In this document: positions 372-14,769 of the stretch, one piece after another
Position numbering within the stretch: the stretch's first letter is position 1
Layout of the letters: the number at the start of each line of letters is the position of its first letter
Assembly: GCF_000332175.1 (NCBI RefSeq)
Contig: NZ_KB235914.1
Span: 1,675,368 to 1,739,367 of the forward strand
Length of the DNA stretch: 64,000 nt
Source: Pseudanabaena sp. PCC 6802
GTDB taxonomy: Bacteria > Cyanobacteriota > Cyanobacteriia > Pseudanabaenales > Pseudanabaenaceae
Direction: 5' to 3'
Notes under the pieces: model-generated
What the model was told of the DNA's origin: nothing
Databases searched by the model: none
Seen by the model: the letters and a program-made list of their open reading frames with translations, nothing else
Position numbers and translations under genes: made by a program

Positions 372-3300
372 CAACGCCTTGCGGCATCAGAGGTTCGATC
401 GCTAATTTTTTACTGTCGCTTTGTGTTAGATATAGTCTCGTGCTCAACGCCTTGCGGCATCAGAGGTTCGATCGCAGTCCTTGGGCAAACTGAGTAAAGC
501 TTCATCAGCTAGTGCTCAACGCCTTGCGGCATCAGAGGTTCGATCGCTCGTAGGCAATCTGGAAATCCCTGTTTATGGCTAGTGCTCAACGCCTTGCGGC
601 ATCAGAGGTTCGATCGCATCCCAGCGCCGCTGTACCTCGGCGATCCATTTCCGGTGCTCAACGCCTTGCGGCATAAGAGGTTCGATCGCAACATAGATTT
701 CAAAAACAATACTTCGACCAGCAGTGCTCAACGCCTTGCGGCATCAGAGGTTCGATCGCTTATTGCTAAGCATAGTTTCTTCTACTATTAAGAAAGTGCT
801 CAACGCCTTGCGGCATCAGAGGTTCGATCGCCATATCGGCCACAACTACACCCAAAAGCACGTAACTATTGTGCTCAACGCCTTGCGGCATCAGAGGTTC
901 GATCGCGGGGTAACCCAACAAAGGCACATTGCGATTCTGTGCCGTGCTCAACGCCTTGCGGCATCAGAGGTTCGATCGCAACCAGATAAAAAGACCTACT
1001 CCTAGCGTATTTAGGCAGTGCTCAACGCCTTGCGGCATCAGAGGTTCGATCGCAGAGTACAATGTGACTTCTCCCATGACATTTAAGTTGTGCTCAACGC
1101 CTTGCGGCATCAGAGGTTCGATCGCCCACATTAGTGCCGATCGCCGCTACTTTGTACTGAAGTGCTCAACGCCTTGCGGCATCAGAGGTTCGATCGCAAA
1201 AAAGCGTCATTAGACACGCCTAAGCCCACACGTGCTCAACGCCTTGCGGCATCAGAGGTTCGATCGCATCGAGCAAAAGCAGGCAGCAAATTAAGTGCAA
1301 AAGGTGCTCAACGCCTTGCGGCATCAGAGGTTCGATCGCTTGATTACCCTCTTCCAAGAACATGTAGCGATCTTGTGCTCAACGCCTTGCGGCATCAGAG
1401 GTTCGATCGCTAATCCTCTCGAATTGATTTATCAATTTTTTTAGCCGTGCTCAACGCCTTGCGGCATCAGAGGTTCGATCGCGGCTAATACCACATGTGG
1501 CTGCTGTTAGGCTATGGAGTGCTCAACGCCTTGCGGCATCAGAGGTTCGATCGCTTCTGTGGTGGGTGTATCCACATTACCCGCATTTAGGTGCTCAACG
1601 CCTTGCGGCATCAGAGGTTCGATCGCTCCACAAAGGGGTAAGGATTGCTGTAAGGAGGATTGTGCTCAACGCCTTGCGGCATCAGAGGTTCGATCGCAAA
1701 ATCTTACCATCGATCCATCACCTAACTCTCCCAGTGCTCAACGCCTTGCGGCATCAGAGGTTCGATCGCAAGTCTTCGTTAGAAACTGAAAGGCTCTATT
1801 TGCTTGTGCTCAACGCCTTGCGGCATCAGAGGTTCGATCGCAATATAAGACTTTTAGAAATATGTCAATACTTTTTTGTGCTCAACGCCTTGCGGCATCA
1901 GAGGTTCGATCGCATTTTGATCGTCTCATGATGATATTCCGTATTTGGTGTGCTCAACGCCTTGCGGCATCAGAGGTTCGATCGCAGCGGATTGGTAACG
2001 GATATACGCCGAAAGAGTTAGTGCTCAACGCCTTGCGGCATCAGAGGTTCGATCGCACCTATTCGGCAATCAACCATTTGTGCTGCTGCTGTGCTCAACG
2101 CCTTGCGGCATCAGAGGTTCGATCGCGTGCTGACTGTCGCTATTCTAGACTGTTTTACCAGTGCTCAACGCCTTGCGGCATCAGAGGTTCGATCGCTGGA
2201 GGGCTTGCCCATAAAAGAGATACTTCAGGTATCTGTGCTCAACGCCTTGCGGCATCAGAGGTTCGATCGCACGTCCTCATCTGGAGGGTACCAGCACCAC
2301 CATCTTCGTGCTCAACGCCTTGCGGCATCAGAGGTTCGATCGCTGTATTGATTGCTTTTGCTTTTCGGTTAGAGTCGTTAGTGCTCAACGCCTTGCGGCA
2401 TCAGAGGTTCGATCGCACTCTCTTAGTGGCACATAGAAAAAATTATGAAAGAGTGCTCAACGCCTTGCGGCATCAGAGGTTCGATCGCCGCGGCTGAAAT
2501 TTGGTTCAGATCCTCCCATTAAATAGTGCTCAACGCCTTGCGGCATCAGAGGTTCGATCGCGGTGTTCCAAGATTGATCCTTGTTCTATAATACCGTGCT
2601 CAACGCCTTGCGGCATCAGAGGTTCGATCGCGACGATCGCTATAACCTTAAAGCTTTCAGCGCTTGGTGCTCAACGCCTTGCGGCATCAGAGGTTCGATC
2701 GCTCTCTTATTGCTAAATGAGGGCAACAGTTTGTCGCGTGCTCAACGCCTTGCGGCATCAGAGGTTCGATCGCAAGACCTATGCAAGCGATTTAGTACGG
2801 GGCTTAAGAGTGCTCAACGCCTTGCGGCATCAGAGGTTCGATCGCGTTCAAAAGGTTGAGATCCTTTGAGTATTCCTTTTGGGTGCTCAACGCCTTGCGG
2901 CATCAGAGGTTCGATCGCGTTATCAAGGCAATGGGCGATCGCTCAAGAATACCCGTGCTCAACGCCTTGCGGCATCAGAGGTTCGATCGCGTCTCAAGTT
3001 GAGACTGATGAGACACAGCCCTAGACAGTGCTCAACGCCTTGCGGCATCAGAGGTTCGATCGCAAATCGAAGCAGGTATTATCTTCACGATTGGGAAAGT
3101 GCTCAACGCCTTGCGGCATCAGAGGTTCGATCGCTCCTATGGCTAGCTGCATAGTGCGCGGCAGAGTGTCGTGCTCAACGCCTTGCGGCATCAGAGGTTC
3201 GATCGCCTTAATATTTCTTAACATGCAACAAACAGAAGCCCGTGCTCAACGCCTTGCGGCATCAGAGGTTCGATCGCATCGGCTACAACTACACCCAAAG

Positions 3301-3640
3301 ACACGTAACTGTCGTGCTCAACGCCTTGCGGCATCAGAGGTTCGATCGCAGAACGGTAAAAGGCTTAAACGAAATAGAGTTTTTACCGTGCTCAACGCCT
3401 TGCGGCATCAGAGGTTCGATCGCCTGGCCAAGTTTTTCTTCGGTATCGCAGCGATCGCAGTGCTCAACGCCTTGCGGCATCAGAGGTTCGATCGCATATT
3501 AGTTAATCAGTTGAGTCAATCGAATTGTATGTGCTCAACGCCTTGCGGCATCAGAGGTTCGATCGCCTGTTCGAGACACCGAACCAAATTAGGGCATCTG
3601 TTTGGTGCTCAACGCCTTGCGGCATCAGAGGTTCGATCGC
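367..3640 (-). CRISPR. CRISPR array, 46 repeats and 45 spacers
   Basis: The 36-base repeat begins GTGCTCAACGCC and ends GAGGTTCGATCGC on the plus strand. I counted 46 copies (starts 367, 440, 512 ... 3460, 3531, 3605) and 45 spacers of 34-39 bases. All are identical except the fifth copy (654-689), which has C to A at 675. Read on the minus strand the repeat has a 5-bp stem, ATGCC/GGCGT, around a GCAA loop, followed by a TTGAGCAC-like 3' end, as expected for a Cas6 product with an 8-base handle. Three facts put the leader at the 3640 end and transcription on the minus strand: cas2 is at that end, a promoter lies at 3728-3757, and the only mutated repeat is near the other end. Spacers 7 (832-870) and 41 (3278-3313) are near-duplicates. 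Confidence 0.98.
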
Positions 3641-5875: not shown

Positions 5876-5900
5876 GTTCAACGCCTGACGGCATCAGCGG
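5876..5900 (-). other. Solitary CRISPR-repeat-like hairpin inside the cas operon
   Basis: GTTCAACGCC (5876-5885), TGAC, then GGCATCAGCGG (5890-5900) matches the array repeat at 20 of 24 positions over its conserved stretch. The ACGCC/GGCAT stem is fully kept; only the loop and flanking bases differ. The orientation is the same as in the array, so the hairpin would form in the cas mRNA, just before the cas4-cas1 ribosome site. It also contains the stop of the decayed relE reading frame. It could be a Cas6 cleavage site in the operon transcript or a relic of an older array. Confidence 0.6.
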
Positions 5901-6033
5901 TAGGATAGTAGCAGTATCAAAGGGTCAGTTGATTCCAGTTCTGTAAATACAATCGCCTCAACTCTTTCTTGCCCATCTTTAGGCAGTTTGGAAGTTCTTT
6001 TAGAAATCTTTTGGTGTATTCAGCTTTCCACAT
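5894..6033 (-). pseudogene. RelE-type toxin remnant, frameshifted and truncated
   Basis: ATG at 6033 overlaps the antitoxin stop. The frame reads MWKAEYTKRFLKELP, typical of RelE/ParE-like toxins, then loses phase. One base later the protein resumes as KLPKDGQERVEAIVFTELES, so one A is missing near 5986-5990. The resumed frame stops at 5894-5896 inside a CRISPR-repeat-like sequence, after about 46 residues instead of the usual 85-90. The toxin is therefore dead on two counts, while its antitoxin is intact. Confidence 0.75.
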
Positions 6034-11140: not shown

Positions 11141-13536
11141 GGCTCTGCTCCCATTTCTTCACTGTATTGAACTGCATCACCTGGTGCTCTCAGATAGAAT
11201 TTACAGCGCTTCCAAGTTTCCCATCCTTTCACCAGCCGGATTGGCACGCTCCAAGCCTGAGTTTCTTGCATGAACGATTTTTGGTTAGCTTGTGATGCTT
11301 CCTTGATTGCTGCCATATCATCTTCAAGAAGAACTGTTATCGTTCCACCACCTTCACGTAAGGGCACAGGATAATTTTCCCAATCAAGTTCGAGCCAAGC
11401 TGAAGATATATCTTCTTTTTTAGGAATAGGTAGAGCAATTTCCTTAGCAGTGCTGGCAAGATCCTCTTGGCTAATTGCGTCATAATCGTTCAATGCTTCA
11501 ACCAAACGAATTCCTGTCCTCATTTCTTCATTGGTATAAGGCATTCCATCCCAAGCATAAAAGATCGCAGTACAGATTTTCTCAACTCGAAACTGTTCGG
11601 GGGCATATTCCTCTAGTTTGCGATTTAGCCGTCCCAAACGTTGAATCAATGCAGCGGCAGGAGCCATTGCTGTAACTAAAAGATCGGCACTCAAATCGAG
11701 CGACATTTCACAAACTTGGGTAGTAATCACCAAACATGGCACAGCGCTGTCAAAAGCTTGAATCACCTGTTCGTGCTTTCCTAGTTGCTTAACACCTTTC
11801 TTATCTATGTATCCAGCACGATCTCTATAGCGAAATCGACTGTGATAGATGAGATGCTTGATATTTGGGTCATCTAGTTTGGCAATATATTCCTTCGCCT
11901 TACGATAGATGTCAATGCAAGATTGGACTGAATTTGTCACCCACAAGACTTTTTCGCCCCGTTCTAAAGCTTGTGTCACGGCTTCAAACAATGGCTGCAA
12001 ATTTTCGATTTTAGAGTCAATGTCTGGGCGATAGTCAAATTTATAACGCTTGATTTCTTCAAGAGGTTGATAGCCTTTATCTAGAATATTAATTCCCTCA
12101 TTGAGATCTTCTTCGATTATGTTCTGAATTGCTTCCTTCTGCTCTTCGCTAAAACTAGCACTCATTAGTAAGATTGGCGCACCGCGACAGGTTTTGAGAA
12201 ATTTTAATAATGCTCCAAATAGGCGATCGTCGTAGGCATGAACTTCATCAAATACAAACGCTGCCTGCATTAACGCAGGGAAAGCATACAAAGGACGGCG
12301 ATTGTTTTGCATTAACCCTAAGACTGTATCTACTGTGCAAACCACAATTTTTTTTGTCCATGCTTGCAATGACGATAACCGCGCATCAATACTCTCTGAG
12401 TCATCTTGTTCCCCAGAGAATAGCAATTCGCGATCCAGATCGGAGCGAGAATGCATCAGTGCTGACTCGGTATCACTGCCGTTAGCATAATCGATAAATC
12501 CCTGCGTCGCTGTGCCTGTAGTGGGATAGCAAAAGAAAAGCTTACGAGCGGATTGATTTGAATTTCCTGTTGCCCATTTCTGCGCCCAAGCATAGGCAGC
12601 AATAGTTTTGCCAGTACCACAACCTGCTTTAACTAGCGTGACGCGATGGTTCGTATTGGCAATCTCCTCTTGAAAACTACGCAACTTTCGATCGCCTAGC
12701 TTTTCCTGAAGAACATTGTGTAGATCTCCAGGTTCTAAAACCAATTTCAACATTTTGGGAATCCAAGTTTTAATGTCTTCTCCTTGCTCTGTTAAGGCTG
12801 AACCAGCAAGATCGGCGGCGATTACCGTCGCTTTGACAGTGGCAATAAATCGCTGTTCGTATTCATTGCGTTTTTCTAAAGATCCAAATTCCTTGGTGAG
12901 ATTAGCGATCGCTCGTTCCAGTTCTTCTCGACTCCAATCACGGGTTGGCACAGTAGGAACTGACGCGGGCAAACCTAAATACTTTACGCCCATCTTCTTA
13001 GTAACTAACTCAAAGTCTTCATGGGATGTAAAGACCTTCAGACTCGCCCCCGTTCCATTGGGAAAACCATCGATTTTATTAGCATCAAGTTTGAGATGAT
13101 GCCCCATTGCTGCCCATACTGCAACAATTAGATCGGCATCAGGTATTTGCGAAAGCCATTCCCGAAACTCTGGAACTTGTAAGGCTAAAATACCGCTGAG
13201 AACTTCATGACGAATCATCTGGCGTTGTCCATGCGATCGCCATGACTTTTTTCCCTTTGTTAAATCTACATGAGCTAGACCCTTAGATTTGAGATACACC
13301 ATTTCCTGAAAGTGCTGATTAGCTTTGCCCCAATCATGTAGATAAGCGGCTAATTCCACCGTTCTCTCAAATCGTTTGCGATCTTCTGCCGCTAGTCCTA
13401 ACTGTTGAAAAATGCGATCGCCAATTTCCGCAATAATTGTTTTGGTAGACTTATAAACTGCCCAAATATGACCTGTAAAGGTTGCTGAGGTACAGGTTAC
13501 TGAGTTAGTCGATTTCGCCAGCAATCTTTCAAACAT
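11128..13536 (-). CDS. cas3: Cas3 HD nuclease-helicase
   Basis: I chose ATG 13536 (802 residues); AGGAGAG sits 8 bases upstream and the start overlaps the cas6 stop as TAATG. The HD nuclease has LHDWGK (H67, D68) and a later MGHHLKL. The superfamily 2 helicase has Walker A KAGCGTGKT, the DEVH box in FDEVHAYD, SASFSEEQ as motif III, TTQVCEMSLDLSAD and the arginine motif QRLGRLNRK. Both activities look intact. Cas3 unwinds and degrades DNA marked by Cascade. An in-frame ATG at 13572 would add 12 residues lying inside cas6 and lacks a ribosome site. Confidence 0.96.
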   Translation of the reverse strand: MFERLLAKSTNSVTCTSATFTGHIWAVYKSTKTIIAEIGDRIFQQLGLAAEDRKRFERTVELAAYLHDWGKANQHFQEMVYLKSKGLAHVDLTKGKKSWRSHGQRQMIRHEVLSGILALQVPEFREWLSQIPDADLIVAVWAAMGHHLKLDANKIDGFPNGTGASLKVFTSHEDFELVTKKMGVKYLGLPASVPTVPTRDWSREELERAIANLTKEFGSLEKRNEYEQRFIATVKATVIAADLAGSALTEQGEDIKTWIPKMLKLVLEPGDLHNVLQEKLGDRKLRSFQEEIANTNHRVTLVKAGCGTGKTIAAYAWAQKWATGNSNQSARKLFFCYPTTGTATQGFIDYANGSDTESALMHSRSDLDRELLFSGEQDDSESIDARLSSLQAWTKKIVVCTVDTVLGLMQNNRRPLYAFPALMQAAFVFDEVHAYDDRLFGALLKFLKTCRGAPILLMSASFSEEQKEAIQNIIEEDLNEGINILDKGYQPLEEIKRYKFDYRPDIDSKIENLQPLFEAVTQALERGEKVLWVTNSVQSCIDIYRKAKEYIAKLDDPNIKHLIYHSRFRYRDRAGYIDKKGVKQLGKHEQVIQAFDSAVPCLVITTQVCEMSLDLSADLLVTAMAPAAALIQRLGRLNRKLEEYAPEQFRVEKICTAIFYAWDGMPYTNEEMRTGIRLVEALNDYDAISQEDLASTAKEIALPIPKKEDISSAWLELDWENYPVPLREGGGTITVLLEDDMAAIKEASQANQKSFMQETQAWSVPIRLVKGWETWKRCKFYLRAPGDAVQYSEEMGAEPCRH

Positions 13537-14195
13537 TATGTTCTCTCCTTGACTGGAATGAATACACCACAACCCATGTGGCGTTTACCACCAAGTCCAT
13601 AAACTTGTAATTTCAATGAATCTTCTTCACTCAAGTGAATCGCTTCTACTGTAAACCCAATTACTGTAAAACGTTTGATTTTGATAGTTTTCCTGGCAGG
13701 ATTACCATCGCGATCGCAAGGGATAGATAATTCTGCCTGAATTCCCAGCACTTCTAGCTGTCGTTTTGCGGCTTCTAAAAAAGATTCTGGCTCTTGATAA
13801 CCTTTAATGGTGACGACACGCGATCGCAAGTACGGTCGCGGTCTCAGGGTCTGAATTTCGGGAATCCCTAGCTGTATATCATGAATACCAAGCGTGAGAT
13901 GCTTACCTGCAAGCACGTACACAAGTGGAATTTTTGTGACTGGAACGCGAATGCGGAAGCAAGAATGCTCGGTGAGCAAAATCTTACCTTCGCGATCGCC
14001 AAAGCCAGCAGCAGTTAGAATTGCAATATCATTATGTTCTTTGATTTTGGGAATGTGACGCGCGATCGCCCCTAAAAGCGCGTAGCCATGATCGGCAGGC
14101 AAGTATTTGCCACGGAGAGGGAAAGATAAATCAATAAACGGTTCCAACCACTCGTCTTTAGGGATCTGATGAGCCATCTGAAACGAAGAAGTCAT
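13536..14195 (-). CDS. cas6: Cas6 crRNA-processing endoribonuclease (Cmx6 type)
   Basis: I chose ATG 14195 (219 residues), since AGGAGA lies 8 bases upstream; the open frame itself extends to 14273. It starts MTSSFQMAHQIPKDEWLEPF and contains SFPLRGKYLPADHGYALLGAI, where the His in ADHGY is a plausible catalytic residue. It ends with GLGGKRHMGCGVFIP, the glycine-rich loop of Cas6 RAMP proteins. It should cut repeats at the base of the ATGCC/GGCGT stem. It precedes cas3 with a TAATG overlap, so cas6-cas3-cas8 are tightly coupled. Confidence 0.9.
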   Translation of the reverse strand: MTSSFQMAHQIPKDEWLEPFIDLSFPLRGKYLPADHGYALLGAIARHIPKIKEHNDIAILTAAGFGDREGKILLTEHSCFRIRVPVTKIPLVYVLAGKHLTLGIHDIQLGIPEIQTLRPRPYLRSRVVTIKGYQEPESFLEAAKRQLEVLGIQAELSIPCDRDGNPARKTIKIKRFTVIGFTVEAIHLSEEDSLKLQVYGLGGKRHMGCGVFIPVKERT

Positions 14196-14280
14196 TGTAA
14201 TTCTCCTATTTAGTTGAAGAAAATTTCTAAAACCTAGTGTTTGAAGCGTGGAGTTAATCTCTCCAAGCCCCACTGACTAA

Positions 14281-14550
14281 TTAATCAATCCGAATAATTT
14301 CCCAGCGATTACGCCCCTTATGCCAGATGCGATGGCTTTTATACTCTACACATTGACTAATTAAAACTAGTCGTAGATCGAGTGCTTTACCAAAACGTTC
14401 TGATACTTGGTCAGTTTGTAAGACTTCTAAGCGCGGGGGATCAGGAGGGAATTGAAGGCAAAGTTGCCCCCTTCCTGAGGAGAGTTTTTGTGTTAACATG
14501 AGGAGTAATAATAAATTTACAAAGCGGAGATAGCTATTTGGCTGCTCCAC
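14281..14550 (-). CDS. Small unknown protein at the head of the cas operon
   Basis: The frame gives 89 residues from a GTG at 14550 or 72 from ATG 14499; neither has a good ribosome site. The body reads GQLCLQFPPDPPRLEVLQTD, then ALDLRLVLISQCVEYKSHRI, and ends WHKGRNRWEIIRID. This looks like a small beta-rich fold with a basic tail. I know no family for it. It starts 8-60 bases after the predicted cas promoter and ends 85 bases before cas6, so it is the first gene of the transcript and a candidate regulator or anti-toxicity factor. It could also be a leader frame without function. Confidence 0.5.
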   Translation of the reverse strand: MEQPNSYLRFVNLLLLLMLTQKLSSGRGQLCLQFPPDPPRLEVLQTDQVSERFGKALDLRLVLISQCVEYKSHRIWHKGRNRWEIIRID

Positions 14551-14557
14551 TTTTTTA

Positions 14558-14587
14558 TTTATATACTAGGGTGTCTGCATTAGTCAA
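14558..14587 (-). promoter_or_regulatory. Predicted cas operon promoter
   Basis: TTGACT (14587-14582) and TATAAA (14563-14558) on the minus strand are 18 bases apart (17 if ATATAA is used). Transcription would begin near 14550, at the first gene of the cas operon. A full 29-base copy of the CRISPR repeat lies 42 bases upstream of the -35 box. Confidence 0.6.
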
Positions 14588-14628
14588 CACATTTACCATT
14601 AGTATCATCAGGAGTATCATTAATAATT

Positions 14629-14657
14629 GTGCTCAACGCCTTGCGGCATCAGAGGTT
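14629..14657 (-). repeat. Solitary CRISPR repeat copy upstream of the cas promoter
   Basis: Twenty-nine bases, from GTGCTCAACGCC through ATCAGAGGTT, are identical to the array repeat. The last seven repeat bases are replaced by AAGAGCA. The kept part includes the whole stem-loop and the 3' handle. It lies 11 kb from the array, in the same orientation, just above the cas promoter. Together with the degenerate copy at 14730 it encloses a 72-base spacer-like stretch. Confidence 0.9.
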
Positions 14658-14729
14658 AAGAGCAGTTAGCAAGGTTAAAGCATACCTGCTCGGCACTTTG
14701 CACGATCGACTAACATTGATCATCAGTAT

Positions 14730-14769
14730 GTGCTCAACGCTTTTGCACAAAGCTTTAAAGCATCAAAGA
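14730..14769 (-). repeat. Degenerate CRISPR repeat with preserved hairpin and handle
   Basis: The first 11 bases (GTGCTCAACGC) match the array repeat, then the sequence diverges. A hairpin remains exactly where the repeat has one: GCTTT/AAAGC arms in 14739-14753 replace the original GCC/GGC stem, directly next to the unchanged 9-base GTGCTCAAC. CATCAAAG near 14761 recalls CATCAGAG of the consensus. Changed sequence with unchanged structure suggests selection for Cas6 recognition rather than random decay. Confidence 0.55.

What the first reader, a model, noticed from the sequence alone, without database searches (positions are those of the whole stretch)
14629..14769. Pair of repeat-like hairpins enclosing a 72-base stretch above the cas promoter: candidate crRNA-like regulatory RNA
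A 29-base exact repeat copy (14629-14657) and a second copy (14730-14769) lie in the sense orientation above the predicted cas promoter. The second has lost its sequence but rebuilt the stem (GCTTT/AAAGC) exactly beside an unchanged GTGCTCAAC handle. This resembles the crRNA-resembling antitoxin (CreA) and Cas-regulating RNAs described for type I loci: repeat, long spacer-like insert, repeat. Seen: the two hairpins and their position. Inferred: a processed RNA that guides Cascade to repress cas genes or a toxin.
Basis: partly seen in the sequence, partly recalled or inferred. Interest (0 to 1): 0.85.

Follow-up and report, generated by a model that had tools for sequence, protein, structure and literature searches.

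The report
crRNA-like RNA repressing cas genes (CreR)
Next to its CRISPR immune genes this cyanobacterium carries a tiny decoy CRISPR unit whose RNA should guide the CRISPR complex back onto the switch of those same genes and turn them down, and matching guide-and-target pairs in two dozen related genera show that the arrangement is real and under selection.

Summary
On the minus strand, a degenerate repeat with an intact 8-nt handle (psiR1, 14730-14764) is followed by a guide. The guide's first 17 nt match, at 14 of 15 scored positions, an ATG-flanked site at 14589-14605 that overlaps the likely -35 of the cas operon. This is the single best match in the 5.6-Mb genome.

About 29 comparable units lie upstream of cas6 in 24 cyanobacterial genera with type I-MYXAN (Cmx6/Cmx1/Cmx8) systems. 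Guide and target change together; mismatches concentrate at positions 6 and 12, which Cascade does not read; the target is always preceded by ATG; psiR1 keeps the handle while psiR2 keeps the body. This is how known CreA/CreR units degenerate.

Apparently new features: a conserved ~32-nt stem-loop inserted just before psiR2 in most Cmx1-type units (z = -10.6), including this one; in seven loci the PAM is the likely cas6 start codon; and a second two-repeat unit 450 kb away whose guide best matches the start codon of the first ORF of this same cas operon. The toxin alternative is not supported. Nothing here shows transcription, processing or repression.

The parts
14730..14764 (-). psiR1: degenerate repeat body with a hairpin, and the intact 8-nt 5' handle TTGAGCAC (14730-14737); predicted Cas6 cut between 14738 and 14737
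   Evidence: Handle identical to the array's handle; body 7/20 identical to the repeat; stem better than shuffles across 30 units
14713..14729 (-). Guide seed (first 17 nt of the spacer-like stretch): ATACTGATGATCAATGT
   Evidence: 14 of 15 read positions match the site at 14589-14605; best match in the window and in the 5.6-Mb genome
14660..14691 (-). Internal 32-nt stem-loop GAGCAG...CTGCTC inserted just before psiR2
   Evidence: Similar hairpin at the same place in 16 non-redundant long-class units, summed folding energy z = -10.6, 0/300 shuffles
14629..14657 (-). psiR2: exact 29-nt repeat copy; its hairpin would be the 3' end of the mature RNA
   Evidence: Exact match to the array repeat; in relatives the body is kept and the handle usually lost
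14637..14737 (-). Predicted mature CreR RNA, 101 nt (handle + guide + stem-loop + psiR2 hairpin)
   Evidence: Inferred from the two predicted Cas6 sites
14589..14608 (-). Target: PAM ATG (14606-14608) plus protospacer seed (14589-14605)
   Evidence: replaced together with the guide in relatives
14560..14587 (-). Probable cas promoter: -35 TTGACT (14582-14587), -10 TATATA (14560-14565), 16-nt spacing; overlaps the target's distal end
   Evidence: Read from the sequence; not called by the strict consensus scan, so inferred
14607..14620 (-). Possible weaker second site ATG-ATACTCCTGAT, 12 bases upstream of the main target
   Evidence: 9 of 10 read positions over the first 12 nt; may be chance or a tandem duplication
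14281..14499 (-). ORF1, 72 aa, first gene of the repressed operon; its start codon is the best target of the trans-encoded guide
   Evidence: no Pfam match
13536..14273 (-). cas6 (Cmx6), followed by cas3, cas8a1/Cmx1, cas7, cas5: the regulated operon
   Evidence: NCBIfam TIGR02807, TIGR01587, TIGR03485/6, TIGR02585, TIGR02586
367..3640 (-). CRISPR array with 46 repeats, the source of the competing crRNAs

Best explanation
The stretch encodes a CreR, a cas-regulating crRNA-like RNA made from a minimal two-repeat CRISPR. Transcribed on the minus strand, it would be cut by Cas6 at both pseudo-repeats to give a ~101-nt RNA with the normal 8-nt handle and a repeat hairpin at its 3' end. It loads into the type I-MYXAN Cascade and takes it to an ATG-flanked site overlapping the -35 of the cas promoter (14589-14608). 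Pairing of about 17 nt, with Cascade's unread positions 6 and 12 free to differ, would let Cascade bind and block transcription without recruiting Cas3 for cleavage. The result is autorepression of cas genes, relieved when array crRNAs or anti-CRISPRs take up Cascade. Shown by sequence: the unit, the target, and their co-evolution in relatives. Inferred: transcription, Cas6 processing, Cascade binding, repression, the sensor role, and the function of the internal hairpin.
For: Target is the unique best match to ATG + guide seed in the genome, 1 mismatch over 18 specified positions. An unbiased pair scan upstream of cas6 recovered the same architecture in unrelated loci. Handle-anchored scan of 98 cas6 loci: 30 score at least 12/15, against 0-3 in each shifted-handle or other-PAM control. 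Position profile of 30 pairs: 1-5 and 7-11 each 26-30/30, position 6 only 5/30, position 12 12/30, position 18 7/30, chance after ~24. Skipping (6,12) gives 13 loci at 14/15 or better and 5 perfect; other same-phase pairs give 2-5 and 0. The nearest relative, Pseudanabaena sp. UWO311, has changed guide and target together (AATGT/AATGT here, TCCGT/TCGGT there). psiR1 keeps the handle (TTGATCAC where the array has TTGATCAC) and loses the body; psiR2 does the reverse, as reported for CreA (PMC9458426). Over ~20 kb of each of 35 loci the scan finds almost only this unit upstream of cas6.
Against: No RNA data. The -35/-10 call is weak by strict consensus. psiR2 here keeps an intact handle, unlike most relatives. 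Many cas6 loci of this type show no such unit. The ATG PAM is inferred from the targets themselves; no phage protospacer of the array was found to confirm it.
Confidence: 0.88

Rival explanations
1. CreA-type antitoxin: the RNA represses a toxin (CreT or CreP) encoded just downstream, and cas genes are bystanders.
For: A 72-aa ORF of unknown function lies between target and cas6; in the homologous Synechocystis sp. PCC 6714 locus a hicBA pair sits between target and cas6.
Against: In G389, G109, G539, G635 and others the target is 106-150 nt from the cas6 domain start with no intervening gene of 30 aa or more, and in seven loci it lies on the probable cas6 start codon. The intervening ORFs are not conserved in all loci. 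No terminator was found between target and cas6.
Confidence: 0.07
2. Remnant of an eroded CRISPR array without present function; guide-target similarity is leftover DNA duplication.
For: psiR2 is an exact copy and insert lengths are irregular.
Against: Homology stops at the guide seed, is always preceded by ATG, and mismatches follow a 6-nt rhythm. Guide and target are replaced together in many genera.
Confidence: 0.03
3. DNA operator or transcript-leader element: the inverted and direct repeats bind a protein or fold in the cas mRNA leader, without Cascade.
For: Stem-loops are present, and a WYL regulator gene lies upstream in 9 related loci.
Against: Does not explain the conserved 8-nt handle, the ATG rule or the 6-nt mismatch rhythm.
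Confidence: 0.02

Closest known systems
CreR, cas-regulating RNA (reported for types I-B, I-E and V-A)
   Same: Two-repeat mini-CRISPR upstream of the cas operon; limited complementarity to the cas promoter; PAM-flanked target
   Different: Here in cyanobacterial I-MYXAN systems with Cmx1 or Cmx8; most Cmx1 units carry a ~32-nt stem-loop before psiR2 (predicted mature RNA ~100 nt instead of ~72); some targets use the probable cas6 start codon as PAM; G538 and G495 carry a second 15/15 or 14/15 site over psiR1 itself. The primary CreR paper could not be read here, so some of this may already be described.
CreA of CreTA modules
   Same: psiR1 keeps the 8-nt Cas5-binding handle and loses the body; psiR2 loses the handle (PMC9458426, PMC8501985); short seed pairing blocks a promoter
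   Different: No toxin found; the target is the cas promoter or cas6 start. Unlike haloarchaeal CreA, psiR1 here retains a stem
CRISPR array crRNA (Rfam CRISPR-DR33)
   Same: Repeat, handle and predicted Cas6 site
   Different: Two diverged repeats, long structured insert, guide matching the host's own genome only over the seed

Membership tests
CreR | One or two ectopic, degenerate CRISPR repeats next to the cas operon with an intact 5' handle | tested here: met
   handle 8/8, psiR1 body 7/20, psiR2 20/20
CreR | Guide with limited complementarity to the cas promoter, next to a PAM | tested here: met
   14/15 read positions, ATG, unique best in the genome; overlap with the -35 rests on reading the sequence
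CreR | Guide and target maintained together by selection | tested here: met
   ~29 units with different guides and matching targets
CreR | RNA is made and processed by Cas6 | not testable with these tools
CreR | Cascade-dependent repression of cas genes, relieved by crRNAs or anti-CRISPRs | not testable with these tools
   Needs reporter assays
CreTA (CreA antitoxin) | A toxin gene is the one repressed by the guide | tested here: inconclusive
   ORF1 of unknown function here; relatives target cas6 directly, which argues against it
CreTA (CreA antitoxin) | Divergent degeneration of psiR1 and psiR2 | tested here: met
   compared with PMC9458426; in this window psiR2 is not degenerate

The most novel reading that the evidence does not exclude
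Two crRNA-like RNAs control the same cas operon from different loci: the local CreR at the promoter, and a second two-repeat unit 450 kb away (C5:2142133-2142229; guide TTAACTCAAAAACTGTA) at the start codon of ORF1. In addition, Cmx1-type CreRs carry a dedicated stem-loop domain that limits the Cas7 filament or guide pairing, so that Cascade binds without licensing cleavage.
Probability: 0.4. Interest if true: 0.78.

Novelty: new variant of a known kind. Interest (0 to 1): 0.62.

Why it matters
It extends RNA-guided self-control of CRISPR systems to a CRISPR type found in about a quarter of the genomes of one sampled cyanobacterial set, with evolutionary evidence for the guide-target pairing. 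The 6-nt mismatch rhythm in natural regulatory guides is an independent in vivo readout of how this Cascade reads its target. The conserved stem-loop, the use of a start codon as PAM and the trans-encoded second guide are concrete and testable. Named, culturable strains carry the unit, and a published Synechocystis sp. PCC 6714 primary transcriptome (SRP032230, cited in PMC5386190) could be checked at once.

Tried and rejected
Fixed motif search for TTGAGCAC upstream of cas6: it used the wrong orientation for minus-strand loci and was redone with orientation. Array spacers against phages and plasmids to confirm the PAM: no usable protospacer, only other arrays and weak hits. RNAalifold on a MAFFT alignment of the long-class inserts failed to align the arms and found only the psiR2 stem; replaced by per-sequence folding against shuffles. 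A guide starting after psiR2 of the trans unit has no convincing target. CreR versus WYL regulator as simple alternatives: not significant overall (Fisher p = 0.18), although all 9 short-class units have WYL upstream and no long-class unit does. A link to the Myxococcus dev operon's autoregulation was considered, but no Myxococcota locus could be reached. The copy at 5895(-) before cas4-cas1 has no matching target. The candidate in G233 was dropped as doubtful.

Full report
Setting. The window comes from a cyanobacterium of the same family as Pseudanabaena in the search set. On the minus strand it holds a type I-MYXAN operon: ORF1 (72 aa), cas6/Cmx6, cas3, cas8a1/Cmx1, cas7, cas5, then a cas4-cas1 fusion, cas2 and a 46-repeat array. 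In crRNA orientation the repeat is GCGATCGAACCTCTGATGCCGCAAGGCG|TTGAGCAC, so the finding lies sense to the cas genes and directly upstream of them.

The observation. Both hairpin copies are present as described. On the minus strand the order is psiR1 (degenerate body, perfect handle), a 72-nt insert, psiR2 (exact 29 nt), and then the leader of the cas operon.

The missing target. The insert starts ATACTGATGATCAATGT. Downstream, at 14589-14608, lies ATG-ATACTAATGGTAAATGTGTTGACT. With positions 6 and 12 set aside, because type I Cascade flips out every sixth base (established knowledge), 14 of 15 positions match. It is the best hit in the 64-kb window and in the whole genome, with 1 mismatch over 18 specified positions. 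The protospacer runs into TTGACT-N16-TATATA, the likely cas promoter. That promoter is my reading of the sequence; the strict consensus scan did not list it.

Relatives. In Pseudanabaena sp. UWO311 (Cas6 70% identical) the same unit has the guide ATACTAATGATCTCCGTTGGTTG and the target ATG-ATACTAATGATATCGGTAGGTTG. Both have changed at positions 13-15 relative to the window, and the mismatches between them are at 12, 15 and 18. A pair scan that did not require a handle then found, in other cyanobacteria, quite different guides with quite different matching targets, each next to ATG and upstream of cas6. Examples: G389 TTTAGCTACTTTGTG / ATG-TTTAGATACTTAGTG; G101 TTTCGTGTTTTCAAGG / ATG-TTTCGAGTTTTTAAGG.

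Statistics. Of 98 cas6 loci, 30 reach at least 12/15; shifting the handle or replacing ATG by ten other triplets gives 0-3. After removing array and gene artefacts and adding weaker cases with a clear psiR2, about 29 units in 24 genera remain. Match rates: positions 1-5 and 7-11 26-30 of 30, 6 5/30, 12 12/30, 13-15 23-27/30, 18 7/30, chance beyond ~24. Positions 6 and 12 were left out of the selection score, so their low rate alone could be chance; the phase test settles it. Skipping (6,12) yields 13 loci at 14/15 or better and 5 perfect ones, whereas other same-phase pairs yield 2-5 and none. Scanning ~20 kb around 35 loci finds almost nothing but these units.

Anatomy. psiR1 keeps the handle and loses the body; psiR2 keeps the body and usually loses the handle. 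This is the pattern described for CreA repeats (PMC9458426; PMC8501985). Where the array handle is TTGATCAC the psiR1 handle is TTGATCAC too (G622, G692). psiR1 stems at the cleavage site beat shuffles. The window is unusual in keeping the psiR2 handle intact.

Two size classes. The distance from psiR1 to psiR2 is 55-74 nt (9 units) or 95-112 nt (21 units, window 101). The long class carries a 31-36-nt stem-loop 1-8 nt (mostly 3-4) before the psiR2 body, often with a TTAACAT-like loop. Its summed folding energy is far below shuffles (z = -10.6, n = 16, 0 of 300), and subtracting it leaves ~69-70 nt in most units, close to the 72-nt array unit. Where a 20-kb region was fetched, long units go with Cmx1 and short ones with Cmx8, except G421; Gloeothece PCC 7424 is a second exception (Cas8a1, short). 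All 9 short units have a WYL regulator gene upstream and no long unit has; shared ancestry may explain this. The function of the stem-loop is unknown; stopping the Cas7 filament early is my guess.

Where the target sits. In five loci with short units a -10-like hexamer starts 26-28 nt after the protospacer start. In seven loci (three groups of related genomes) the ATG PAM opens the reading frame that runs into cas6, so it is probably the start codon. In G538 and G495 a second near-perfect site overlaps psiR1, suggesting that CreR also represses itself.

A second unit. The genome holds another two-repeat unit at C5:2142133-2142229. Its guide TTAACTCAAAAACTGTA has its best non-self match in the genome at window 14480-14499, ATG-TTAACACAAAAACTCTC, the start codon of ORF1 in the same cas operon. 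It scores 13/15; none of 20,000 shuffled guides reaches 13 in that region, and none of the 46 array spacers exceeds 10. UWO311 shows no such extra unit in the repeat search, so this rests on one case.

Named strains. Synechocystis sp. PCC 6714 pSYLB (14/15), Gloeothece citriformis PCC 7424 (15/15), Nostoc sp. CENA543 (12/15) and Nostoc sp. MS1 (12/15) carry such units. Primary-transcriptome data of PCC 6714 exist (SRP032230, PMC5386190).

Placement. Reviews state that CreRs act in types I-B, I-E and V-A through partial promoter complementarity (PMC13131331; PMC12737573). This locus meets every sequence-level feature of CreR that could be tested. It is a variant, not a new kind.

Noticed in passing
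L039:5100-5240 (own genome C5:2142100-2142240): Second two-repeat mini-CRISPR; its guide best matches the start codon of ORF1 in the window's cas operon. Its second repeat is read as the N-terminus of a gene with a C-terminal HNH domain and a weak ribbon-helix-helix match.
   Followed up: partly
5876-5905 (minus strand): A third degenerate repeat (ACCGCTGATGCCGTCAGGCG TTGAACTG) just upstream of cas4-cas1; no matching target found.
   Followed up: partly
14281-14499 (minus) and L013, L057, L020, L021, L054 upstream of cas6: Small ORFs of about 70-100 aa with a similar C-terminus (HKGRN-W) precede cas6 in several CreR loci; possibly a small DNA-binding protein; no convincing Pfam match.
   Followed up: partly
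L147 (Synechocystis sp. PCC 6714 pSYLB): A hicBA toxin-antitoxin pair lies between the CreR target and cas6, so the guide may also control a toxin-antitoxin pair.
   Followed up: no
L129 about 1311-1339 and L133 about 1071-1099 (G538, G495): A second, 15/15 or 14/15 target overlaps psiR1 itself: likely CreR self-repression.
   Followed up: no
835-870 and 3278-3313: Two array spacers are nearly identical (ATCGGCCACAACTACACCCAAA.. / ATCGGCTACAACTACACCCAAA..), suggesting repeated capture from related invaders.
   Followed up: no
14521-14560 (minus) and L040:7680-7712: The cas leader carries a hairpin whose sequence appears in reverse-complement orientation in UWO311 (AGTGGRGCAGCCAAATAG), as if a small repeat element had flipped.
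   Followed up: no
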